Positions 1,103 through 11,918 of a DNA stretch of 16,892 bases are shown one piece after another. A model generated the notes under the pieces. That model did not search any database and had not been told where the DNA came from. It saw only the letters and a program-made list of their open reading frames with translations. A program made the position numbers and the translations under genes. Numbering within the stretch: position 1 is the first letter of the stretch; each line of letters opens with the position of its first letter. Source of the DNA: Desulfobacterales bacterium (GTDB lineage Bacteria; Desulfobacterota; Desulfobacteria; Desulfobacterales; Desulfobacteraceae); the NCBI GenBank assembly GCA_022361095.1, contig JAKSBO010000189.1, positions 1-16,892 on the forward strand, written 5' to 3'.

Positions 1103-3760
1103 ATGGTCAAAAAGAAACAAACACCCATGATGGCCCAATACCTGGCCATCAAAGAAACCTGTCAGGACGCAATACTTTTTTACCGCATGGGAGATTTTTA
1201 TGAGATGTTTCTTGGGGATGCCGTCAAGGCAGCCGGCATCCTAGAAATCGCCCTGACCTCCCGGAATAAAAACGACCCTGATCCCATTCCCATGTGCGGT
1301 GTGCCATACAAGGCCGCCGATCTTTACATTGCCAAACTCATTGAAAAGGGTTGCAAAGTTGCAGTGTGCGAGCAGGTCGAGGATCCGTCCCAAACCAAGG
1401 GCCTTGTCAAACGGGAGATTGTCCGGGTCATTACCCCGGGTATGATTCTCAACGACTCTCTTTTGGACCGGGGAACCAACAACTTTCTGGTGGCAATTGC
1501 CAAAATTTCCGATCATGCAGGGCTTGCCTGCATAGACATATCCACCGGCAGTTTTACCACCTGCCAGGCAAAACGCACCTCGGCCATCATCCCGCACATC
1601 CTTTTGGACGAGGCGTTAAAGCTGTCCCCCAAAGAGGTGCTGCTGCCGGACAACTTCAAGTCTGACCCGGCCATGGCTGCCGTCAGGAAAGCATTTTCCC
1701 ATGTTGAAATCACCTATCTGGACAACTATGCGTTCCGGCCTGACAATGCCCGGCAGCTTCTGACGGAACAGTTTGCCACCCGCAGCCTTGAAGGATTCGG
1801 TATTGAACGTATGCCGGCCTGCATATCTGCCGCAGGCGCAGCCATATCCTATGTCCGGGATACCCAATTGGCGGATACCAGCCATATTTATAAAATCAAC
1901 GCCTATAATCTTAATGACTTCATGGTCATTGATGACAGGTCCTGCAAAAACCTTGAGCTGCTGACCAATATCCAGACCCAGAGCCCCAAAGGCTCCTTGA
2001 TCCACATTTTGGACAAAACCGTCACGGCCATGGGCGGCAGGTTGATCAAACAATGGATCAGATACCCCCTGGTGGACAAAGACCTGATTCAGCAGCGCCT
2101 CGGTGCCATAGAAGAATTGATTGGCGCACCCGCCGCCCACCTGGCACTTGGCGACCTGCTTAAATCCGTATATGATCTGGAACGTTTGGGCTCGCGCATA
2201 TCCATGGGCCAGGGTAATGACCGGGACATGCTCTCCCTTAAAAATTCCCTGTCTGTGCTGCCGGACTTATTCAAGGAGATCGAGGAATTTGAAAGCCCGA
2301 TCCTCAACGGTACGGGCTTGCATAAGAAACAGTCCCTGGTTCAGGATTTAGAAGCCCTGGCCCAATTGATCAGCAAAGCCATCCGGGAAGATGCCGTGCA
2401 CGTGCTCAACGAAGGCAACCTGATCAATGACGGATACAGCCCGGAACTGGACGAACTTTTAGCGATCACCAGGGACGGGAAATCCTGGATTGCCAAAACA
2501 GAAAAAAAAGAAAAGGAAAATACCGGGCTCTCCTCACTTAAAATTAAATATAATAAGGTGTTCGGGTATTTCATCGAGGTATCAAAAGCCCAGTCTGCCC
2601 AGGTACCGGATCACTACATCCGGAAACAGACCCTTGTCAATGCCGAGCGGTTCATTACCCAGGACATGAAAGCGGTGGAAGATACCATATTCAATGCCCA
2701 GGAACGCCGGAACGCACTGGAATATGAAATTTTCTGTACGGTCAGGGAGAAGGTGGCCCAACGGGCAAAGGATATTCTGACCATGGCACAGTTTGTTGCC
2801 GCTATTGACGTGGTCCAGGGACTTGCCCGGGCGGCCGTTGAAAATGCCTATGTGAAACCTGAAATCAATGATGACAGACACATTGACATACAGGACGGCA
2901 GGCACCCTGTGGTGGAAAAACTGATCCAGGGAGAACGGTATGTACCCAACTCCATTGCCCTGGACGATGTCCAGTGCCAGCAGATCCTGATTACCGGTCC
3001 CAATATGGCAGGTAAATCCACAGTGCTGCGCCAGGTTGCCCTAACTGTTCTCATGGCCCAGATGGGTTCTTTTGTGCCGGCGGCTGCGGCTTCCACCTGC
3101 ATAACGGACCGAATATTTACCCGGGTGGGGGCATTGGACAATCTCTCCTCCGGGCAGAGCACCTTCATGGTTGAAATGGAGGAGACCGCCAATATTGTCA
3201 ATAATGCCACGGAAAAAAGCCTGGTAATTCTGGATGAAATCGGCAGGGGCACATCCACCTACGACGGCATGAGCATTGCCTGGGCCGTGGCCGAGTACCT
3301 GCACGACCTGAACGGGAAAGGGGTAAAAACCCTTTTTGCCACCCATTACCACGAACTGCTCCAACTTGAAGAGATCAAGCCCCGGATCAAAAATTATAAT
3401 ATTGAGGTCAAGGAATTTAACGACAATATTGTGTTTCTTCGCAGCCTGGTCAAAGGGGGCACGAACCGGAGCTACGGCATCCAGGTGGCACGCCTGGCAG
3501 GGGTGCCCGATGATATCATTGATCTTGCCAAATCGGTCCTGGCATCTGCGGAACAACACCCGGCGACACCGGCACCGTCAACACAGCCTGCCAAAAAGAA
3601 AAAAGGGGCAAAAAAACGGAAGGCCGACGGTCAGATGAACCTGTTCGGCCCCTCGGACGATGAATTGCGTCAAATGCTGAACAACATAGATATTGCCCAA
3701 ATGACACCCCTTGACGCGTTGAACTTTTTAAATGAACTCAAAAGTAAGGTTGAGGCATGA
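1103..3760 (+). CDS. mutS: DNA mismatch repair protein MutS
   Basis: This is a full-length MutS of 885 aa. It recognises base mismatches and small loops and, in its ATP state, recruits MutL. The mismatch-reading motif F-Y-E is at residues 32-34. The Walker A loop GPNMAGKST is at 632-640, the Walker B/signature segment LVILDEIGRGTST at 707-719, and the conserved histidine of ATHYHEL at 748. A lysine-rich linker (about 826-840) leads to QMNLF at 844-848, a good beta-clamp-binding motif. The final residues (TPLDALNFLNELK) match the C-terminal tetramerisation tail. All key residues are present, so it should be active. No clear Shine-Dalgarno sequence precedes the ATG, so the start could be residue 9 or 10. 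Its stop overlaps the amidase start (ATGA, 3757-3760), implying translational coupling. Confidence 0.97.
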   Translation: MVKKKQTPMMAQYLAIKETCQDAILFYRMGDFYEMFLGDAVKAAGILEIALTSRNKNDPDPIPMCGVPYKAADLYIAKLIEKGCKVAVCEQVEDPSQTKGLVKREIVRVITPGMILNDSLLDRGTNNFLVAIAKISDHAGLACIDISTGSFTTCQAKRTSAIIPHILLDEALKLSPKEVLLPDNFKSDPAMAAVRKAFSHVEITYLDNYAFRPDNARQLLTEQFATRSLEGFGIERMPACISAAGAAISYVRDTQLADTSHIYKINAYNLNDFMVIDDRSCKNLELLTNIQTQSPKGSLIHILDKTVTAMGGRLIKQWIRYPLVDKDLIQQRLGAIEELIGAPAAHLALGDLLKSVYDLERLGSRISMGQGNDRDMLSLKNSLSVLPDLFKEIEEFESPILNGTGLHKKQSLVQDLEALAQLISKAIREDAVHVLNEGNLINDGYSPELDELLAITRDGKSWIAKTEKKEKENTGLSSLKIKYNKVFGYFIEVSKAQSAQVPDHYIRKQTLVNAERFITQDMKAVEDTIFNAQERRNALEYEIFCTVREKVAQRAKDILTMAQFVAAIDVVQGLARAAVENAYVKPEINDDRHIDIQDGRHPVVEKLIQGERYVPNSIALDDVQCQQILITGPNMAGKSTVLRQVALTVLMAQMGSFVPAAAASTCITDRIFTRVGALDNLSSGQSTFMVEMEETANIVNNATEKSLVILDEIGRGTSTYDGMSIAWAVAEYLHDLNGKGVKTLFATHYHELLQLEEIKPRIKNYNIEVKEFNDNIVFLRSLVKGGTNRSYGIQVARLAGVPDDIIDLAKSVLASAEQHPATPAPSTQPAKKKKGAKKRKADGQMNLFGPSDDELRQMLNNIDIAQMTPLDALNFLNELKSKVEA

Positions 3761-5253
3761 ATACCGCGTTTAAACGCATATTCACCGTTGTTATTCCGAT
3801 TCTGACCTGCCTTTGCCTGTTTACCTGGACCAATGGGACAGCCCTTGCGGCCGATACGGCCAAAACCAGGTACCTGGCGGCAGATACCTGTCTTAAAAAA
3901 TTGAAACGCTCTTCAGTGAACATAAACAAAGTGGCTGCCTGGCTCAAATGTATTGAAAAATACAAAGCCATCCACAGCAGCTTTCCCGGAAATTCCTGGG
4001 CACCGGCCGGGTTGTACAAAGCCGCAGAACTCTATTTCCAGTTGGCCAAAAGATCCGGCAATGCCCACTGGAACAGCCAGGCAGATGACACCATCGCCCG
4101 CATTAAACGATTTTATCCCCAAAGCGCCTACAGTGCTCGGGCCCGGACCCTGGCGGCAGCAAACGCCTCAAGGCCCCGTCAAAACGGCAGCGACATAAAA
4201 ATAAAACGGTCTAAAAAAGCATTAACCCGCAACGATAAAGCCATTGCGGAATACCACAAACAAAAACTGGCCCGGGCCGAGGCCGCCGATACCGGTGAAT
4301 ACCGGCACCCCTCCGATATTGTAAAACAAAACACAGGAGATACGGTGTATCGCGACCCTGTTGCCGATAAACAAATTGAAACTGATCCGCCGCCGCCCAA
4401 AGGAGATACAACAGTTACGGACCTAAGGTTCTGGTCCAACCCGGAATACACCAGGGTTGTGGTGAATGCAGACCGTGAACGAAAATACACCCACAGGCTT
4501 TTGAAAAAAGACCCGGTCCTGCATGTCCCTTTCCAAAGACTCTATGTGGACATTAACCAGGCAAGACTTGGCCGCAATGTGCCTGACCACACCCCCATCA
4601 ACGACGATCTGCTCAAACAGGCCCGGGCCGGCCAGTTTGCCCCACACACCGTCAGGGTCGTCGTGGATATAAAAGATTTTGATAATTATAAAATATTTTC
4701 CTTGAAAGACCCGTTCCGTATCGTTATTGACCTGTGGGGCAAAAATGCGACCGGCCCCATGGACCGGATTGCCGATGCCGCCTCCGGAATAAAGCCTTTA
4801 GATGAAAAGCCGGACCGCGTTACCACGGACAATTTAAAATCGTCCGACATTGCCCGCCAGCTTGCCCTGGGTGTCCGGAAAATCGTCATTGACCCCGGCC
4901 ACGGCGGCAAGGACCCCGGCGCGCCCGGATACATTAAAGGCGTATGGGAAAAGGATATTGTGCTCAAACTGGCAACAACCCTTGCCAAAAAATTGCGCAG
5001 CCGCCTGAACTGCGAGGTGTTGCTCACCCGGACCACAGACCGGAAACTCACCTTGGAGGAACGCACCGCCATTGCCAATACCCAGAATGCCGATTTGTTT
5101 ATCTCCATGCACTGTAATGCTGCAAAAAGCAAAAAACTGTCCGGTATAGAGACCTATATTCTCAACCTGGCCACGGACGAACAGGCCATTGCCGTAGCTG
5201 CCAGGGAAAATGCCACATCCAAAAAAATATCTCGGATCTGGCCTATATCCTAA
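3757..5253 (+). CDS. N-acetylmuramoyl-L-alanine amidase (AmiC type), frameshifted: N-terminal piece
   Basis: Zinc amidases of this family (Amidase_3) cut the bond between muramic acid and the stem peptide in periplasmic peptidoglycan, for example at division. The product starts with a signal peptide (about residues 1-32, ending TALA-AD). A TPR-like helical stretch follows (about 40-140), then a basic linker and an AMIN domain (about 220-330) that would hold it to the envelope. The catalytic domain begins at about 375. Zinc ligands are visible as H382 (DPGHGG), E398 (WEKD) and H452 (SMHCNA). The frame is then lost: after residues TSKKI it reads five to six foreign residues to a TAA at 5251. 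The cause is a missing A in the A7 run at 5221-5227. Without the downstream piece the catalytic glutamate is absent, so this product alone should be inactive. The start overlaps the mutS stop by ATGA. Confidence 0.85.
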   Translation: MNTAFKRIFTVVIPILTCLCLFTWTNGTALAADTAKTRYLAADTCLKKLKRSSVNINKVAAWLKCIEKYKAIHSSFPGNSWAPAGLYKAAELYFQLAKRSGNAHWNSQADDTIARIKRFYPQSAYSARARTLAAANASRPRQNGSDIKIKRSKKALTRNDKAIAEYHKQKLARAEAADTGEYRHPSDIVKQNTGDTVYRDPVADKQIETDPPPPKGDTTVTDLRFWSNPEYTRVVVNADRERKYTHRLLKKDPVLHVPFQRLYVDINQARLGRNVPDHTPINDDLLKQARAGQFAPHTVRVVVDIKDFDNYKIFSLKDPFRIVIDLWGKNATGPMDRIADAASGIKPLDEKPDRVTTDNLKSSDIARQLALGVRKIVIDPGHGGKDPGAPGYIKGVWEKDIVLKLATTLAKKLRSRLNCEVLLTRTTDRKLTLEERTAIANTQNADLFISMHCNAAKSKKLSGIETYILNLATDEQAIAVAARENATSKKISRIWPIS

Positions 5254-5555
5254 ATGATTTAATGAAACATGCCAAAATCGAAGAATCCACACGTCTTGCC
5301 AATGATGTTCATAAAGCCATGATTACAGGCATGAAAAAAAAATACGACAACATTCGTGATCTGGGGGTTAAGCAGGCACCGTTCTATGTACTGCTTGGCG
5401 CACGGATGCCCGCAATCCTCATTGAAGCCTCATTTATTTCCAACAAGATCGAATGCAAGCGCCTGATGACCGAAACCTACCGCAATGATATCTGCAACGC
5501 CATTGCCGACGGGATAGAAAAGTATATCAATGCGACAAATCCCCAGCACATATAA
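5226..5555 (+). pseudogene. Amidase C-terminal piece, out of frame with the gene start
   Basis: Read one base back from the A7 run (AAT at 5226-5228), the sequence continues N-I-S-D-L-A-Y-I-L-N-D-L-M, as expected for Amidase_3 proteins, and ends at the TAA at 5553-5555. The piece holds the conserved ILIEASFISN motif (GAA at 5424-5426), whose glutamate is the catalytic residue. Joined to the upstream piece it would give a normal protein of about 599 aa. An ATG at 5262 opens the same frame but has no convincing ribosome binding site, so separate translation is unlikely to yield a useful enzyme. The break may be a sequencing error in a homopolymer, a true recent mutation, or a site of transcriptional or ribosomal slippage. 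Apart from this base the sequence is intact, which argues against long decay. Confidence 0.75.
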
Positions 5556-5720
5556 CTTGGGCCTGCAGCATCCCCTCAGATATCCAAGGGCATGCCCCCG
5601 TACCTTCATAAAGACAAAAGAACGCAAAACCTATAACTGCCATAGGCTGACCGACCTGGCCCATCAATACCCAGGCGTAACCCGTGACAAAATATGAATA
5701 TCAAATAAAAGGTGGAATTT

Positions 5721-6509
5721 ATGTCATTTGAAAACATTCTTCTTGAGATGGACAGTGCCATTGCCGTAATCTCTTTTAATCGGCCCAAAGCGTTGAATGC
5801 CCTGAACAATGCACTGCTTGATGAACTTGATGTTGCCTTGGATCAGGTGCTGGCCAATGATGAAATCCGGGTGCTCATTTTAACAGGCACCGGAGACAAA
5901 TCCTTTGTAGCCGGGGCAGATATCTCAGAACTGACCCGGATGGATGCCTTGGCAGCAAAATACTTCTCCCGCAAAGGCCAAAAAATATTCTCCAAGATTG
6001 AAGCCCTGCCCTTCCCGGCCATTGCCGCCGTAAACGGGTTTGCCCTGGGCGGCGGCAGTGAAGTTGCCCTGGCCTGTGATTTTATCTATGCTTCGGAAAA
6101 AGCGATTTTCGGACTGCCTGAAATCAACCTGGGCCTGATTCCCGGTTTTGGCGGAACCCAGCGTCTTTCAAGGGTTGTGGGGAAAAGCAGGGCCAAGGAG
6201 ATGATTTTTACCGGAAGCAATATTACTGCAGACAAAGCCCTGGAATATGGTTTGGTTAACCAGATATGCTCCCATGAATCCCTTATGGACGAGGTCAAAA
6301 AAACTGCCCAACGCATTGCAGCCAAAGGATGCGTTTCCCTGAGGGCAGCCAAAGAGGCTGTACAGGCAGGACTGGGTTGTGACCTTGAAACCGGATGCCT
6401 GATTGAAAATGACGCTTTTGCCATAGCCTTTGCAAGCGCGGATGCCAAGGAAGGCACATCGGCATTTTTGGAAAAAAGAAAGCCTGAATTCACAGGTACA
6501 CTTAAATAA
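5721..6509 (+). CDS. Enoyl-CoA hydratase/isomerase (crotonase family)
   Basis: This 262-aa protein is a typical single-domain crotonase that adds water to trans-2-enoyl-CoA, as in beta-oxidation or butanoyl-CoA metabolism. Both catalytic glutamates are present: E114 in GGGSEVALACD and E134 in GLPEINLGLIPG. They are 20 residues apart, as in the classic rat mitochondrial enzyme. The oxyanion-hole region (AGADISEL near 65-72, and the GGG loop) and GFGGTQRL are intact. The length equals that of the family. The ATG at 5721 is chosen because AAGGTGG (5709-5715) sits in front as a ribosome binding site; a GTG at 5712 falls inside that site. Neighbouring CoA-ligase genes suggest a role in acyl- or aryl-CoA breakdown. 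The exact substrate (short-chain, crotonyl, or other) cannot be told from sequence. Confidence 0.9.
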   Translation: MSFENILLEMDSAIAVISFNRPKALNALNNALLDELDVALDQVLANDEIRVLILTGTGDKSFVAGADISELTRMDALAAKYFSRKGQKIFSKIEALPFPAIAAVNGFALGGGSEVALACDFIYASEKAIFGLPEINLGLIPGFGGTQRLSRVVGKSRAKEMIFTGSNITADKALEYGLVNQICSHESLMDEVKKTAQRIAAKGCVSLRAAKEAVQAGLGCDLETGCLIENDAFAIAFASADAKEGTSAFLEKRKPEFTGTLK

Positions 6510-6528
6510 CACCTTGGCATAAACAAGC

Positions 6529-6650
6529 ATTTGGACGTTAATTTGTTGAAATGCAAAATGCATAAAATTTTACAACCAGCCCATACTATAGTATGTGAGG
6601 ATTGTAAATTTTTTATGTAAGGCCGCAGATAGATTTTTTTGCGTCCAAAT
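6529..6650. repeat. 122-bp imperfect palindrome, MITE-like
   Basis: The ends are a perfect inverted repeat, ATTTGGACG (6529-6537) and CGTCCAAAT (6642-6650). Inside, GCATAAAATTTTACAA (6560-6575) pairs imperfectly with the complementary stretch 6602-6618. The centre is the perfect 14-bp palindrome CATACTATAGTATG (6582-6595). The whole could fold into one long hairpin. It fills the gap between the crotonase gene and the CoA-ligase gene. No open frame and no obvious target duplication are visible. A small non-autonomous transposable element is the first reading; an operator array is the other. Confidence 0.5.
6569..6614 (+). terminator. Possible intrinsic terminator downstream of the crotonase gene
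   Basis: The inner part of the palindrome pairs TTTACAA (6569-6575) with TTGTAAA (6602-6608), encloses the 14-bp palindrome 6582-6595, and ends in T6 (6609-6614). It could end the crotonase transcript about 100 bp past the stop. The stem is AT-rich, so its efficiency is doubtful. Confidence 0.35.
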
Positions 6651-6674
6651 ACCAGATAACCAGGGAGATGAAAT

Positions 6675-7979
6675 ATGCCCATATACGACATTGACTACGA
6701 GACGATGCCCAGGGAAGGCCTTGAGGCAATCCAGCTTCGCCGCCTTCAAACCACCATTGAACGGATATATGCCACAGTTCCTTTTTACAAGGAAACTTAT
6801 GACAAAGCCGGGATAAAGCCCTCTGACATAAAAAGCCTGGATGATTTAAGACGCCTGCCTTTTACCACAAAGCAGGATCTTAGGGACAATTACCCTTACC
6901 GCATGTTCGCTGTCCCCATGGAACAGGTGGTCCGCATCCATGCGTCCTCAGGAACCACGGGTAAACCCACAGTTGTCGGCTATACCAAGCGGGATATCAG
7001 CACCTGGGCTGATTTGATGGCCAGAAGCATGGCTGCCGCCGGCGGTACGCCGGGAGACATCATCCACAATGCCTGGGGATATGGACTTTTCACCGGAGGC
7101 CTTGGGGCTCACTATGGGGCGGAACGTTTGGGCGCATCGGTTATCCCGGTTTCCGGAGGTAATACCAAACGGCAGATCACCATTATGCAGGATTTCAAGC
7201 CCACAATTCTATGCGGCACACCATCTTATATCCTCCATCTGGCTGAAGTGGCAGATGAAATGGGGGTGGATTTCAGAGATTTGTCTTTTAAATCCGGTAT
7301 TTTCGGTGCAGAGCCCTGGACGGAGAGAATGCGCCGGGAACTGGAGGCCAAACTCAATCTCAAAGCCGTGGATATTTATGGCCTTTCTGAAGTCATGGGA
7401 CCGGGTGTATCCGTGGAGTGTGTTGAAGAGCAAAAAGGCCTTCATATTGCCGAGGATCATTTTATTGTGGAGATCGTAGATCCGGATACCCTGGAACCTG
7501 TTCCCCCCGGAGACCCCGGTGAGATTGTTTTCACGTCCATTACCAAAGAAGCATTTCCGGTGATTCGTTACCGAACCAAGGACATCACCTCCTTGAATCC
7601 TGTACCCTGTACCTGCGGCAGAACCCACATCCGGATGAACAAACCCTCGGGCCGTACCGACGATATGCTTATCATCCGGGGCGTTAATGTCTTCCCCTCC
7701 CAGATTGAAAGCGTGCTCATGGAAAACCGGGAAGTCGCCCCCCATTACCAACTCGTCGTTGACCGGGTGGACAACCTGGATACCTTGACGGTCAAAGTGG
7801 AAATCGACGACGCCTCCTTCAGCGATGACATCAAGGGGCTGCAGGCCATGGAAGGTAAAATTTCACATAATATTAAAGAACACTTGGGCGTATCCGCCAA
7901 GGTGGCCCTTGTGGAGCCTAAAACCATAGAAAGAAGCCAGGGCAAGGCTGTCAGGGTGATAGATAACCGCCAATTTTAA
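6675..7979 (+). CDS. paaK: Phenylacetate-CoA ligase family protein
   Basis: This 434-aa adenylate-forming enzyme activates an aryl acid such as phenylacetate with ATP to an adenylate and then to the CoA thioester. The length and motifs match the PaaK family. The phosphate-binding loop SSGTTGKPT is at residues 91-99 and the adenine-contact motif YGLSE at 235-239. The hinge region [16 protein letters not shown] starts at 326, and the small C-terminal domain has the HLGV...SQGKAVRV segment. A CPCTCG-like cysteine pair (PCTCGR) lies near residue 310. GGGAG (6663-6667) precedes the ATG at a normal distance. It is followed after only 14 bp by a tandem ACT protein, a pairing common in anaerobes where arylacetates arise from aromatic amino acids through indolepyruvate:ferredoxin oxidoreductase. 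Those oxidoreductase genes are not in the window. The aryl substrate is uncertain. Confidence 0.92.
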
Positions 7980-7993
7980 CCAAGGAGATTATT

Positions 7994-8422
7994 ATGGCTG
8001 AACAGATATCCATATTCATAGAAAATAAAGAAGGGCGTCTTGCTGAAGTCACTGCCATTTTAAGGGATGCCGGGGTGAACATACGGGCGCTCTCCCTGGC
8101 AGACACCACAGATTTTGGTGTCTTGAGACTGATTGTCAATGAGAATGAAAAAGCCACAGCAGCCTTACGGAATCAAGGGTTTACCGTGGGCAAGACCCGT
8201 GTTCTTGCCGTAGAAGTGAATGACGAACCCGGTGGCCTGAACCAGGTGCTGGACCCTTTAAGTGAACAAGGTGTCAACGTGGAGTACATGTATGCATTTG
8301 CCAACCCCCAGTGCAAAAACGCCATCATGATTTTCCGGTTTGACGACATTGAAAAAGCAATAGTTATTTTAGCGGAAAAGGGCATTAAAGTCATAGATAA
8401 AGAGGAAATCTCAAATCTTTAA
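7994..8422 (+). CDS. Tandem ACT domain protein
   Basis: This 142-aa protein consists of two ACT domains. The first covers about residues 4-65 and has the signature ENKEGRLAEVTAILRDAGVN. The second covers about 72-138 and repeats the pattern in NDEPGGLNQVLDPLSEQGVN. ACT domains bind amino acids and often regulate amino-acid enzymes. Stand-alone two-ACT proteins recur next to phenylacetate-CoA ligase genes in anaerobes, so it may sense an aromatic amino acid and modulate the ligase or the upstream oxidoreductase; that role is inference. AAGGAG (7982-7987) gives a strong ribosome binding site, and the 14-bp gap to the ligase gene indicates one transcript. Confidence 0.88.
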   Translation: MAEQISIFIENKEGRLAEVTAILRDAGVNIRALSLADTTDFGVLRLIVNENEKATAALRNQGFTVGKTRVLAVEVNDEPGGLNQVLDPLSEQGVNVEYMYAFANPQCKNAIMIFRFDDIEKAIVILAEKGIKVIDKEEISNL

Positions 8423-8468
8423 ATGTCTGTTTATAAATTCTGTTGGAACAAATACAATAAACACCGTT

Positions 8469-8506
8469 TTATGGCACCGGATCACAAACGTGTTCCGGTG
8501 CCATAA
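8469..8506. terminator. Perfect 13-bp hairpin after the ACT gene
   Basis: TTATGGCACCGGA (8469-8481) and TCCGGTGCCATAA (8494-8506) are exact reverse complements around a 12-base loop. The position, 47 bp after the ACT stop, suits a transcription end. No T-run follows on the plus strand, and a short A-run (TTTT on plus at 8467-8470) sits at the other end. It may therefore be a factor-assisted terminator or an RNA-protecting hairpin rather than a classic intrinsic terminator. Confidence 0.5.
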
Positions 8507-8558
8507 TGCACTCAAAGGCTAAAAAATCCAGCCACACCACATTTTTTGCTTCTGAATA

Positions 8559-8759
8559 ATGGTATACTTTACTGGGATAATATGGAGATTGCCATCTCCT
8601 CCTCCCCGGGGTAATTGCCTTCCGGCGCATCTGGTCTCAGGCCGCAAGTTCCGGCGGAATATTGATGAAAATATGGCCATGGGCATCGTGGATACCATCA
8701 TCTCCGCCGGTATCGCGGCAGGGGCTTCGGGTAAGTATCGCCCCCTTAAAGACCTTTAA
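8559..8759 (+). pseudogene. Possible 3' remnant of a lost gene
   Basis: In the 249 bp between the hairpin and the kinase gene one plus-strand frame is open from 8556 to a TAA at 8757. From about 8613 it shows a strong coding-like third-position bias and a protein-like end (NIDENMAMGIVDTIISAGIA, then AGASGKYRPLKDL). The first 18 or so residues look non-coding. I do not recognise the family. It may be the tail of a gene whose front was deleted, or a small gene of its own. No ribosome binding site precedes the ATG at 8559. The stop lies in TTTAAA, shared with the converging kinase gene. Confidence 0.3.
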
Positions 8760-10120
8760 ATGGGCAGAGAAATATTAAAACAGGCACCTTCGCCGGGTGC
8801 AGATTCCACTTCAATTGTACCTTTATGGTTCTCCGTTATGATAAAATAGGCCACTGACAGTCCGAATCCGAACCTTTCTTTGCCATGTGCCATTCCGGGG
8901 AGGGTATGGGGGTCGATGGACGGCCTGGTCACCCCATGGGTTTTAGTGGAAAAAAACGGTTCAAATATTCGCCTGCGGATATTTTGGGACATCCCCGGGC
9001 CATTATCCCTGATTTCAATACAAACCTGATCCTCTCTACCATAGGTCCGCAGAAAAAAAGTCGGACACGAATTATCTGCATGCCCGGCCATAACATGTGC
9101 CCCGTTTGACAGGATATTGAAAAACACCTGTTTCAATTCGTCGCCCCGGCATCTGACTTTTGGTAAATCAGGGGCGTAATCTTTCATAATCCGGATAGCG
9201 TCAAAGTGAAAATCCTCTTCCCGAACATATGTGTTTGATGCCAGTTCAAGGGATTGATCCAATAGAAGGCAAATATCTTCGGCAGCACACCCTATATTGG
9301 TTTTCCCGAAAAAAGAACGCATGTTAGAAACAATCCCAGATGTATTTTTACCGGCTTCATCAGTCAGGTTCTGTGTGTCATAAACATCCTGGCCTTTCAT
9401 ATACCGGTACATTTTTTTTCCCCGCTGGATAGTTCTTTTTTGTATTTCTCCCTCTAACATTGCATTGGTATGCGCTAACGCCTCTTTTTTTTCTTTAATA
9501 ACATCACGCATACGTACAAAATTGCGGTAAAGGATTTTCACCTCTCCAACACCTGTTTGCTCTATTTCATTATCAAAATTCCCTTCATCTGCCTCAGAGA
9601 CGACACGAGCAAGCCGTGAAACCGGTTTAGTGATGGTGTTAATCAAAAAAGCCAACACCACAGTGACAACCAGAGTCATGAAAACGGTAACGGCGAACAT
9701 CCTTGCTTGAAATTGAGCTATTTGTTTCTCAATCAAACCGGTAGAATAAACGACTGTCAGTTTGCCGAGCTTCAAGCCGTTATGGTCTAAAACAAAACTT
9801 TTCTTTATATCCGTTCCGCCCGAAGATATCTGCCTTTCAAGGTGAATATCAATATTTACTTCTGAATCACGGATAGAAAGGCTTTTCATATTTTCGTCAT
9901 CGAAAAAGGTCTCCATATTCATTGTCAGAGTTTCCAAATCCACATTATAAAGGGGAAGGGTATTGATAACCCGCATAAGATAGGCAGATTTGTCAATTTG
10001 CGCATGAAATCTTTTTAACTCAAAAATTTTCACCTGATGGGTGATGAAGAGGCACAAAAACAGATTAACGGTACTGAAAGCAATACCGGCAACGACTATA
10101 ATTTGGGTTCGTAAGCCCAT
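8756..10120 (-). CDS. Membrane sensor kinase-like protein lacking the phospho-accepting histidine
   Basis: The 454-aa product has membrane segments at residues 5-27 and 142-162 enclosing a periplasmic sensor region of about 115 residues, then a HAMP domain (163-215) and a HATPase_c domain. The ATP-binding boxes are complete: N box FFNILSNGAHVM (333-344), G1 DNGPGM (372-377), F box FEPFFSTK (386-393), G2 GFGLSV (418-423). The lid is longer than usual (about 394-417). Between HAMP and the ATPase only about 55 residues remain. They match the second dimerisation helix (EAGKNTSGIVSNMRSFF), but the first helix with the expected HEINNPL-type H-box is absent. Autophosphorylation on a normal histidine is thus not possible. 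The ATG at 10120 is preferred because AGGA lies eight bases upstream; the frame extends to a TTG at 10180. Last gene of the PilZ-ParA operon. Confidence 0.8.
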   Translation of the reverse strand: MGLRTQIIVVAGIAFSTVNLFLCLFITHQVKIFELKRFHAQIDKSAYLMRVINTLPLYNVDLETLTMNMETFFDDENMKSLSIRDSEVNIDIHLERQISSGGTDIKKSFVLDHNGLKLGKLTVVYSTGLIEKQIAQFQARMFAVTVFMTLVVTVVLAFLINTITKPVSRLARVVSEADEGNFDNEIEQTGVGEVKILYRNFVRMRDVIKEKKEALAHTNAMLEGEIQKRTIQRGKKMYRYMKGQDVYDTQNLTDEAGKNTSGIVSNMRSFFGKTNIGCAAEDICLLLDQSLELASNTYVREEDFHFDAIRIMKDYAPDLPKVRCRGDELKQVFFNILSNGAHVMAGHADNSCPTFFLRTYGREDQVCIEIRDNGPGMSQNIRRRIFEPFFSTKTHGVTRPSIDPHTLPGMAHGKERFGFGLSVAYFIITENHKGTIEVESAPGEGACFNISLPI

Positions 10121-10217
10121 ATGATTTTCCTGGTAATCCCCTAAAAGATGTAGCAACAAAAATCGGTTTAGCCAAAACAAGAGGAACCAAACCGGATTTA
10201 TGAATGCAGCCCCTGAA

Positions 10218-11171
10218 CTATTTTAAAAGAGCGGAATTGTTCCCGGAAACCCGGCGAACTAGATTCCGATAGTCTTCCGAGGCTGTTGACCCGGGCGCAA
10301 ATTCAAAAATGGTTTTTCCAAAGGAAGGGGCTTCGGCCAGGTTTTCATTATAACGAATGGGCTTACATAATTGTTGGGGGTACAATCTTTTAAGTTGATC
10401 GTACAGTTCTTTGGGGCCCTTAATCCGCAGATCTAGAAATGTGGGTACAATATATTTTAATTGAATTTCACTTTTGTACTTTTGTATGGCACCCAGACTT
10501 TTAATGAACTCGGCCATCCCATGCAAAGGCATGGCTTCTAAAGCAACAGGCACCAGCACCTCTGTCGAATAAAAAAGGACATTGACAATTAACTGATCCC
10601 ACCCTGGCGATGTATCAATCAAAATAAAGTCAAACTGACTGTCCAGCGGATTCAGGGCTTCGGACAAAGTAAACTCTGCACCAAAACTTTTTTTGTCAAT
10701 AATTCGCTTAACACCTGCCAGAGATTTGCCCCCGGAAAGCAACCATAAATTTTTCCGTGCCTCGATCAGGCAATCTGACATCGTCAATTCCTGGGTTAAA
10801 AGTTCCGTTAATCCGGCTCCCGGTCTTTTGCCGAGAATATAAGATGACTGCCCCTGGGTATCGGTATCAACCAAAAGGACTTTATATCCGGCAAGCGCAA
10901 GTCCGGCACCAAGATTAACACTAGTTGTGGTTTTGCCAACGCCCCCCTTGCTTAGAGTAATACATATTTTTCTGGCAACCGTTCCCAAAGTCCGTTTCAG
11001 CTCAATGGGTTTTTCGTCAGATGTCAGGAGAGAGGAAAAGGATACGGGAAATCTAAACGTGCATGATTTGCAACTGGCCATGATATTTTTTTTGCCTGCA
11101 TCAACAAACGGCTTTAAAGCGTCAGGCTTTACCTTATGTTTCCTGGCACATTTTGGACAGGTTATAATCAC
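10218..11171 (-). CDS. ParA-family ATPase with N-terminal zinc ribbon (MJ0042 type)
   Basis: The 317-aa protein begins with a zinc-ribbon of the MJ0042 kind: cysteines C5-x-x-C8 and C34-x-x-C37. A ParA/MinD-like ATPase follows. The deviant Walker A motif KGGVGKTTTS (75-84) has the signature lysine, Walker A' is VDTDTQGQ (101-108), and Walker B is FILIDTSPG (182-190). ParA ATPases dimerise on ATP, often bind DNA non-specifically and position cargo. The zinc ribbon is unusual for a chromosome-partition ParA, and no parB or parS is present, so a role in placing a protein machine is more likely than DNA segregation (inference). The start is GTG, overlapping the upstream stop in GTGA; AAGGAGAAGG precedes it. 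Confidence 0.85.
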   Translation of the reverse strand: MIITCPKCARKHKVKPDALKPFVDAGKKNIMASCKSCTFRFPVSFSSLLTSDEKPIELKRTLGTVARKICITLSKGGVGKTTTSVNLGAGLALAGYKVLLVDTDTQGQSSYILGKRPGAGLTELLTQELTMSDCLIEARKNLWLLSGGKSLAGVKRIIDKKSFGAEFTLSEALNPLDSQFDFILIDTSPGWDQLIVNVLFYSTEVLVPVALEAMPLHGMAEFIKSLGAIQKYKSEIQLKYIVPTFLDLRIKGPKELYDQLKRLYPQQLCKPIRYNENLAEAPSFGKTIFEFAPGSTASEDYRNLVRRVSGNNSALLK

Positions 11172-11482
11172 AGATCCTTCTCCTTTTGTAACTCGGCTAT
11201 AATGGCATCAACAGCAATACTTGCCAGTTTACGCATGGAGATATGGGCAGCGTTTTCATCGCCGACCTTTATTCTGATTTTGGCCTTTCCTTCCCATATT
11301 TCCACTGAAACATTTCCCTTGGACGATTTCCAGGAAGGGCGCGAAGTCATTTCCGGTAAATCAGGCTTAGCTTCATCGGGCTCACCTTTGTATATCAGGC
11401 AGTCAAGCTTCTTAGCTGCACCGTCAAACGTCTCGTCATCATTGCCTAACAGGCTGTCCATGACATTTTTTTTGGGGGCCAT
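11168..11482 (-). CDS. Hypothetical 104-aa protein, possible ParA partner
   Basis: I do not recognise a family. The product is small and charged. It starts with a basic stretch and a short motif (MAPKKNVMDSLLGNDDE), then a Pro-rich linker (about 34-50). A predicted beta-strand part follows (NVSVEIWEGKAKIRIKV, about 57-73), then a C-terminal helix (about 81-102). The basic N-terminus followed by a LLG element recalls the short N-terminal peptides by which ParB-type proteins stimulate ParA, so a partner role is possible (inference). It lies between the PilZ gene (13-bp gap) and parA (4-base stop/start overlap), which argues for tightly coupled synthesis with the ATPase. Confidence 0.6.
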   Translation of the reverse strand: MAPKKNVMDSLLGNDDETFDGAAKKLDCLIYKGEPDEAKPDLPEMTSRPSWKSSKGNVSVEIWEGKAKIRIKVGDENAAHISMRKLASIAVDAIIAELQKEKDL

Positions 11483-11495
11483 TTAATGTCACCAT

Positions 11496-11918
11496 TTAAC
11501 CTTCTGGGGGTTCTTCAAACAGGTCTTTAACTTCCAAAGCCTTTACTTTAAGCTGCCCAAGAGCGTTTCTCAATGTCTCTCTATTTTCAGAACTGATATT
11601 AACCCATTGAAAACCAATTTGAAAACTGCCGGAATCATTCACAGAGCAGTGAATTACCTTGGCGCAGAGTCCTGTAATATTGACATCCCCAATTCTTAAC
11701 CAAGCGTCTTTGATAATATGGCCTGATTCAAACTCAAGACAGGAGCTGACATTCACGGCAATTCCGGTCTCGGATAAATTGGTTACCAAATATTCGTTTT
11801 CGCCAAGTTTAACTTGTATATTATCTGATAGAGAGACCGGTGTCCGGAACAAATGACGAATTTGCGTATTCTCAGTATTTTCGGGTATCGGCTGAAAATC
11901 TATGGAATCCTCATTCAT
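11496..11918 (-). CDS. PilZ domain protein, likely c-di-GMP receptor
   Basis: This 140-aa protein is a stand-alone PilZ domain. The c-di-GMP-binding residues are visible as RxxxR (R21 and R25 in RHLFR) and the (D/N)xSxxG motif (N47-L-S49-E-T-G52). The rest fits the beta-barrel, including GLCAKVIHC and QIGFQWVNIS, with an acidic C-terminal tail. All contact residues are present, so ligand binding is expected. The ATG at 11918 is used because GGGAG lies a normal distance upstream; the frame also extends to a TTG at 11933. It is the first gene of a minus-strand operon with the 104-aa protein, the ParA ATPase and the His-less kinase, which suggests that c-di-GMP level feeds into whatever the ATPase positions. 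Confidence 0.8.
   Translation of the reverse strand: MNEDSIDFQPIPENTENTQIRHLFRTPVSLSDNIQVKLGENEYLVTNLSETGIAVNVSSCLEFESGHIIKDAWLRIGDVNITGLCAKVIHCSVNDSGSFQIGFQWVNISSENRETLRNALGQLKVKALEVKDLFEEPPEG

What the first reader, a model, noticed from the sequence alone, without database searches (positions are those of the whole stretch)
8756..11918. Four-gene PilZ / small protein / zinc-ribbon ParA / His-less kinase operon: possible new positioning system
Four minus-strand genes lie together, the middle pair sharing a GTGA overlap. They encode a c-di-GMP-binding PilZ protein with all ligand residues, a 104-aa unknown protein with a ParB-like basic N-terminus, a ParA ATPase carrying a Cys4 zinc ribbon, and a two-TM HAMP protein with an intact ATP-binding domain but no phospho-histidine. 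No parB, parS, pilus, flagellar or chemotaxis gene is adjacent. The set could couple c-di-GMP to the placement of a membrane machine. The combination is not one I know as a named system. By eye the block looks more AT-rich than its flanks, which could mean a separate origin.
Basis: partly seen in the sequence, partly recalled or inferred. Interest (0 to 1): 0.7.

Follow-up and report, generated by a model that had tools for sequence, protein, structure and literature searches.

The report
Conserved PilZ, adaptor and ParA module
Three neighbouring genes (a likely c-di-GMP sensor, a small adaptor protein and a ParA-type positioning ATPase) stay together in the same order across several families of sulfate-reducing bacteria and their kin, so they probably work as one unit that places something inside the cell, while the fourth gene, a signalling kinase, is a dispensable addition that has lost its phosphate-accepting site here.

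Summary
The four genes are real, but the kinase is not part of the core. The block is native: 17 of 38 fetched loci have it between ACT and atpE. The core is PilZ > 104-aa protein (p104) > zinc-ribbon ParA. That order holds in 26 of 33 family loci and 17 of 18 loci from six other Desulfobacterota families; all 50 ParAs there carry the Cys4 ribbon. p104 has no name. Its relatives outside the family look like ribbon-helix-helix (RHH) proteins with a short helix-forming tail, the layout of ParG-type ParA partners. One lineage fuses that tail to a second PilZ domain, the best link between c-di-GMP and ParA. The His-less kinase is derived: orthologues have GAF-HisKA-HATPase and HEINNP; one Desulfobacter clade lost the histidine, and this genome also GAF and HisKA, yet selection persists in tested relatives. 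Best reading: a ParA/partner positioning module with a c-di-GMP receptor, patchy in distribution. The cargo is unknown; flagella are disfavoured, chemotaxis arrays on one genome only.

The parts
11496..11918 (-). PilZ-domain protein (140 aa), first gene of the triad; RHLFR and NLSETG motifs of c-di-GMP-binding PilZ domains
   Evidence: Pfam PF07238 E 1.7e-7; motifs and order
11168..11482 (-). p104: unnamed 104-aa adaptor; N-terminal tail plus C-terminal domain homologous over its length to ribbon-helix-helix-like proteins that sit between PilZ and ParA in other families
   Evidence: hhalign A1 vs A6 prob 98.5, E 2.5e-15; A6 profile, which has no window row, finds it at E 5.3e-7; 288 relatives at E<=0.01, none of the 120 listed with a Pfam domain
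11387..11482 (-). p104 tail (residues 1-32): motif 1 KKNVMDSLL and motif 2 LDCLIYK (relatives: LxxLI[YH]R)
   Evidence: loose pattern of motif 1 ([KRHNQ]...[DN][IV][LMF]xx[LIV][LFM]) in 69 of 74 (A2) and 71 of 76 (A6) sequences; both motifs fused to PilZ in P0121-P0126
11171..11335 (-). p104 C-terminal domain (residues 50-104); modelled here as three strands and a helix with modest confidence
   Evidence: AlphaFold2 mean pLDDT 64.3
10218..11171 (-). ParA-family ATPase (317 aa); KGGVGKT, closest solved relatives by sequence are Soj/ParA segregation proteins; overlaps p104 by GTGA
   Evidence: AAA_31 E 1.8e-36; 1wcv E 1.4e-28
11043..11171 (-). N-terminal Cys4 zinc ribbon of ParA (residues 1-43), present in all 50 ParAs of the family and triad loci tabulated
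   Evidence: Zn_ribbon_4 weak, 18.8 bits, cut-off 30.3; Cys4 pattern
8756..10120 (-). kinase-derived membrane protein (454 aa): two-TM sensor, HAMP, HATPase_c; GAF and HisKA missing
   Evidence: Pfam; alignment to longer relatives, two of which show GAF and HisKA matches
9400..9412 (-). approximate junction of the in-frame loss of the GAF and HisKA domains
   Evidence: gap in alignment to nine relatives; sequence of the junction

Best explanation
The core is a three-gene chromosomal ParA positioning module. Shown by comparison: PilZ, p104 and Zn-ribbon ParA are kept together in one order across seven families. Inferred: ATP-bound ParA dimers coat the nucleoid. p104, a dimer built on a ribbon-helix-helix-type C-terminal domain, reaches ParA with a short, helix-forming tail, as ParG does to ParF, and triggers ATP hydrolysis, so ParA gradients move or space whatever p104 holds. 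The PilZ protein binds c-di-GMP and sets whether, or to what, p104-ParA attaches. In Desulfobacteraceae a sensor kinase appears to have been added behind ParA. In one Desulfobacter clade it lost its phosphate-accepting histidine, and in this genome also its GAF and HisKA domains. It is now either a pseudokinase still under selection or on its way out. The cargo is not identified.
For: Order conserved in 26 of 33 family loci (25 of 31 chosen by ParA alone) and 17 of 18 loci of six other families, whose flanks differ by my reading. p104 relatives: RHH_3 is the Pfam family matched by most members, 44 of 76 at E<=1, best 6.7e-5; model of the L135 protein with helices 69-85 and 96-117 in blocks of pLDDT 84-95 and a tail helix 10-16 at about 62. 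p104 is homologous to them. The closest Zn-less ParA relatives (42-46%) are each followed by a small protein, 5 of 5, which together align with this RHH region. Tail+PilZ fusion in six clusters, the query among them. ParG precedent: RHH domain, flexible tail whose fragment folds to a helix on ParF (PMC7308502 passages); partner tails in general (PMC10241942 Discussion). GGDEF in 25 of 25 genomes tested: all 17 outside carriers and 8 of the 33 family ones.
Against: No binding, ATPase or localisation data. Foldseek found no PDB match for the RHH-type model and nothing better than E 0.97 for p104. Sequence search of PDB with the A6 profile gave no match better than E 0.05 and no RHH protein that I recognised. 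p104 itself is modelled with strands where its relatives have a helix, at modest confidence, so DNA binding by this copy is doubtful. The PilZ pattern [DN]xSxxG fails in 6 of 31 family and 8 of 17 outside PilZ proteins, and RxxxR in one. p104 is missing in 5 of 33 family loci and PilZ in 2. The system is patchy: p104-type genes in 14 of 291 order genomes and 14 of 395 phylum genomes. It decays in some Desulfobacter: G003 has no strong ParA match, PilZ is broken in G005, p104 is split in G002. The tail is only weakly basic.
Confidence: 0.55

Rival explanations
1. A chromosome-borne DNA partition module of type Ib kind (like ParF-ParG or archaeal SegA-SegB): the RHH protein binds a centromere-like site and ParA segregates DNA, with PilZ as regulator.
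For: ParA is closest by sequence to Soj/ParA segregation proteins; the partner family looks RHH; SegB is an RHH partner of SegA (PMC9178275 passage).
Against: No clear iteron-like repeat array in the eight upstream regions searched (the best was three imperfect 16-mers in L154). The genome has its own ParA-ParB pair on contig C1017. The partner lies upstream of parA. The Desulfobacteraceae p104 may no longer be RHH.
Confidence: 0.2
2. Positioning of type IV pili or another surface machine under c-di-GMP control.
For: PilM_2 matches in 25 of 25 system-bearing genomes tested; the same 25 have GGDEF proteins.
Against: PilM may be nearly universal here and no set without the system was searched. 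I noticed no pilus gene among the ORFs read near the triads. Flagellin is absent in 6 of 25 system genomes; CheA is absent in one system genome, G034, and was not searched outside the relatives set.
Confidence: 0.15
3. The four genes form one designed signalling unit in which the His-less kinase is the sensor.
For: Kinase sensor orthologues (E below 1e-70) occur in 19 of 59 genomes, each by this ParA (2.8 kb away behind transposase-like ORFs in G004). Purifying selection in two H-to-D orthologues: pN/pS 0.28, p 7e-10 against neutrality.
Against: The kinase is missing from 10 of 26 family loci with the full triad (one of these, L073, is cut by a contig end and its kinase lies on L074), and outside the family only two weak profile scores (18 and 39 bits) were seen. 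Full-length relatives carry HEINNP, HEINES or HEINDS, so the native form is an ordinary histidine kinase.
Confidence: 0.1

Closest known systems
ParF-ParG of plasmid TP228 (type Ib partition)
   Same: Small ParA ATPase with a small partner that combines a flexible tail holding a helix-forming segment with an RHH-type C-terminal domain (PMC7308502, passages)
   Different: ParA here has an N-terminal Cys4 ribbon; the partner gene is upstream; no clear centromere-like array found; a PilZ gene is part of the unit; chromosomal
Archaeal SegA-SegB
   Same: ParA-family ATPase with an RHH partner (PMC9178275, one passage)
   Different: No PilZ or ribbon mentioned in the passage read; bacterial host here
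CdbA and CdbS of Myxococcus xanthus
   Same: An RHH protein and a PilZ protein that tie c-di-GMP to the nucleoid (PMC7156744, PMC10313047, passages)
   Different: CdbA itself binds c-di-GMP; cdbS is not in an operon; the RHH fold of CdbA starts at its first residue (passage). Sequences were not compared
Positioning ATPases with partners, such as McdA, ParC/PpfA and FlhG
   Same: ParA/MinD ATPase plus a partner acting through its N-terminal tail (PMC10241942, Discussion)
   Different: Cargo unknown; partner family and PilZ linkage differ (comparison from recall)
Orthodox histidine kinases (HAMP-GAF-HisKA-HATPase)
   Same: Direct orthologues in five other genera and in same-genus genomes
   Different: The window copy lost GAF, HisKA and the histidine

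Membership tests
PilZ c-di-GMP receptor | PilZ domain match and RxxxR plus [DN]xSxxG | tested here: met
   PF07238 over cut-off; RHLFR and NLSETG in the window protein
PilZ c-di-GMP receptor | binds c-di-GMP | not testable with these tools
   needs a binding assay
Type Ib partition (ParF-ParG) | deviant Walker A ParA of the Soj/ParF type | tested here: met
   KGGVGKT; AAA_31; 1wcv best by sequence
Type Ib partition (ParF-ParG) | ParA without N-terminal extension (recalled) | tested here: not met
   Cys4 ribbon in all 50 ParAs tabulated
Type Ib partition (ParF-ParG) | RHH partner protein | tested here: inconclusive
   RHH_3 under cut-off for L135, the member with a full table; 44 of 76 members at E<=1; no Foldseek match; window p104 modelled differently
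Type Ib partition (ParF-ParG) | centromere-like repeats beside the operon | tested here: not met
   no clear array in eight upstream regions
ParABS | ParB_N protein beside parA | tested here: not met
   four ParB_N matches in the genome, none on the window contig
Two-component histidine kinase | HisKA phospho-acceptor histidine | tested here: not met
   absent in window; HisKA found in L049 (over cut-off) and L044 (under it)
Two-component histidine kinase | HATPase_c domain | tested here: met
   66.2 bits, cut-off 26.4; altered last glycine box
CdbA-like RHH c-di-GMP receptor | c-di-GMP bound by the RHH domain | not tested
   CdbA sequence not compared

The most novel reading that the evidence does not exclude
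A c-di-GMP-gated ParA system: a PilZ receptor and an RHH-derived adaptor share one ParA-binding tail, so that the second messenger decides what a nucleoid-riding ATPase carries. In Desulfobacteraceae the adaptor's DNA-binding fold has changed, turning a DNA-partition partner into a protein-cargo adaptor.
Probability: 0.3. Interest if true: 0.85.

Novelty: new variant of a known kind. Interest (0 to 1): 0.6.

Why it matters
ParA-type ATPases place plasmids, chromosomes and protein machines, and many in genomes are called orphans because no partner is known (PMC10241942, Discussion). Here a family of orphans gets a partner by conserved neighbourhood, and that partner comes with a likely second-messenger receptor. 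If c-di-GMP acts through it, cell positioning would be wired directly to a main lifestyle signal of bacteria. The kinase is a neat side case: one clade shows a histidine kinase losing its histidine (H to D, N or Y) or its whole HisKA domain while, in the pair tested, selection on the gene persists.

Tried and rejected
Foreign origin of the block: rejected by synteny. Cargo = flagellum: disfavoured, since six of the 31 system genomes among 59 relatives lack flagellin (G007, G012, G020, G024, G030, G034; G012 and G024 are 74% and 70% complete), as do 6 of 25, and G003, G022, G023, G029 and G032 have flagellin but no system. Cargo = chemotaxis array: disfavoured by G034 alone (no CheA, 97% complete). 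Centromere repeats: no clear array. RNA elements: none over Rfam thresholds. Viral carriage of p104: none in viral contigs. Promoter and terminator scans are at shuffle level and were not used. PDB fold and profile searches gave nothing usable. A neutral pseudogene reading of the kinase is disfavoured, though the gene lies in pieces in G004 and G014 and G001 (56% complete), G002, G007 and G013 have no sensor match below 1e-70. Not searched: PADLOC and PHROGs.
Full report
What is there. Searches confirm PilZ (11496-11918), a 104-aa ORF here called p104 (11168-11482), a ParA-family ATPase with an N-terminal Cys4 ribbon (10218-11171) and a HAMP-HATPase protein (8756-10120), all on the minus strand, with a GTGA overlap between p104 and ParA. 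The window is contig C130 of G000 (5.2 Mb, 1178 contigs, 95.67% complete, 7.07% contaminated). The genus is Desulfobacter by inference: contigs of same-genus genomes G001, G007 and G012 have the lengths of records named Desulfobacter.

Native, not foreign. Among the 59 genomes (the window's own included) the Zn-ribbon ParA has a strong match (E below 1e-110) in 31 of the 36 family members; G003, G022, G023, G029 and G032 lack one. Of the 23 genomes of other families, five have a best match of 42-46% identity and the rest weaker ones; those five were aligned and lack the ribbon. Tblastn of the window proteins on 38 fetched loci shows the block with ACT on one side and atpE on the other in 17: 11 of the same genus and 6 from five other genera. 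Nine more loci show only one of these flanks and 12 neither; these 12 include the five Zn-less loci, a second ParA copy of G010 and a paralogue locus of G003. In L055, L056, L057, L065 and L067 the Zn-ribbon ParA sits in other surroundings.

The kinase is an eroding addition. Two full-length relatives tested encode 676 aa with HAMP, GAF, HisKA and HATPase (GAF_2 1.4e-8 and 6.9e-11; HisKA 36.0 bits in L049, but 22.4 bits and under cut-off in L044). Relatives of five other genera (L051, L052, L054, L061, L062) and four same-genus genomes (L048, L049, L050, L074) read HEINNP. In the rest of the genus the motif is HEINES or HEINDS in L044, L045 and L059, VNEMNG in L042, ADEISE in L038 and L039, AYEING in L041 (frameshifted, with transposase-like ORFs before it), and HisKA is deleted in L040 and L043. 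The window copy lacks GAF and HisKA. On the ParA tree the six copies without the histidine (G000, G016, G006, G015, G004, G009) form one clade (support 100/98) and G005 lies outside it, so at least two losses are likely; only 6 of 25 inner branches of that tree are strongly supported. The closest relatives of the window (G016, G006) have D at that site, so the histidine was probably gone before the larger deletion. Between L038 and L039, both H-to-D, pN/pS is 0.28 over the gene, p 7e-10 against neutrality. Sensor orthologues occur in 19 of 59 genomes, each by the Zn-ribbon ParA. The window deletion itself rests on one fragmented assembly, but the HisKA deletions in G015 and G005 are in single-contig genomes.

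The three-gene core. I tabulated 33 Desulfobacteraceae loci: the 31 with a strong ParA match, and two (G266, G290) chosen by their p104. Of the 33, 26 have PilZ > p104 > ParA in that order (25 of the 31), 5 have PilZ and ParA without p104, and 2 lack a recognisable PilZ; all 33 ParAs have the Cys4 ribbon. Five further family genomes without a p104 match (G236, G257, G274, G301, G312) were not examined. A p104 profile matched 14 of 291 genomes of the order, and a profile of relatives from outside the family matched 14 of 395 genomes of the phylum. All 18 loci outside the family from these two calls were read: 17 have the triad in the same order; the exception, L164, has a 124-aa p104-like ORF and no ParA in the 8 kb fetched. 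The 18 loci come from six families. These 17 were found through p104, so they say that p104 is not found without its partners; the family set of 31, found through ParA, says how often ParA has p104 and PilZ.

What p104 is. Pfam and NCBIfam do not name it, and of its 288 relatives the 120 listed carry no Pfam domain. Relatives outside the family read KKKTTHYLSE..F..L..A...I......KSRISKSRIV..AL.MILKEF, and RHH_3 is the Pfam family matched by most members, 44 of 76 at E<=1, best 6.7e-5. An AlphaFold2 model of L135's protein has two helices at high confidence and short, less certain helices in the tail. Profile comparison joins the two groups at probability 98.5, E 2.5e-15, and the outside profile recovers the window protein at E 5.3e-7. 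The five Zn-less ParA genes are each followed by a small protein (5 of 5); their alignment matches the RHH part at probability 92. Against this, no PDB fold or profile match supports RHH. In the window version the region of the first RHH helix is modelled as strands (pLDDT 64), so a changed fold is possible but not shown.

Link to c-di-GMP. L064 (G024) carries PilZ, then a p104-tail+PilZ fusion, then p104, then ParA. The fusion occurs in six protein clusters (P0121-P0126; P0121 is the query itself) that keep both tail motifs. This is the strongest sign that the tail is a portable ParA handle and that PilZ acts in the same reaction. It remains an inference. The strict ligand pattern is complete in 25 of 31 family and 9 of 17 outside PilZ proteins.

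Known systems. ParG has an RHH domain and a flexible tail; a fragment of the tail folds into a helix on ParF (PMC7308502, passages). Partner proteins across the ParA/MinD family are said to act through a positively charged disordered N-terminus (PMC10241942, Discussion section); the tails here are only weakly charged. CdbA and CdbS tie c-di-GMP, RHH and PilZ to the nucleoid in Myxococcus, but cdbS is not in an operon (PMC7156744 and PMC10313047, passages). Paper searches combining PilZ and ParA with ribbon-helix-helix, zinc ribbon, positioning, Deltaproteobacteria, Desulfobacter or Desulfobacterota listed no paper that I recognised as describing this unit; the library is open-access only, the lists were capped, and most papers were seen only as listings.

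Cargo. Flagellin is missing in 6 of 25 system genomes and CheA in one, G034. PilM is present in 25 of 25 and GGDEF in 25 of 25, 2 to 40 matches each; the 25 are all 17 outside carriers and 8 of the 33 family ones, and without a control set these say little.

Verdict. A patchy but conserved ParA-partner-PilZ unit, most likely for intracellular positioning, new in its combination as far as these searches show, and built from known kinds of parts. The four-gene reading with a His-less kinase is not supported as a system.

Noticed in passing
window 3757-5555 (+): The N-acetylmuramoyl-L-alanine amidase-like gene (name by eye) is split into two frames near 5250, while the first part matches one stretch in several relatives; sequencing error or pseudogene.
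   Followed up: no
window 8580-8759 (+): Apparent 3' remnant of a plus-strand gene, 78-79% identical in DNA to L038:2475-2651 and L039:2702-2878, where about 3 kb lies between ACT and the kinase.
   Followed up: partly
L066 (G010) 3926-9011: A second Zn-ribbon ParA copy (59-61% identical) without PilZ or p104 lies near a Ras-family-like GTPase and a DUF4388 protein.
   Followed up: partly
L055 (G020) 5756-7529: Behind PilZ-ParA the kinase is replaced by a 433-aa protein without Pfam match and a STAS protein.
   Followed up: partly
L041 (G004) 8874-11344: Two long ORFs that look by eye like transposase genes lie between ParA and a frameshifted kinase.
   Followed up: no
L043 (G005) 6704-7010: PilZ is broken by stops in a single-contig genome that also lost HisKA from its kinase.
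   Followed up: partly
L162, L163 (G504, G547): The triad lies near a response regulator and a PAS-like protein, and in L163 a CheC-like protein (all read by eye).
   Followed up: no
L056, L057 (G025, G033): The PilZ-ParA genes lie beside genes that read by eye as glycogen metabolism enzymes.
   Followed up: no
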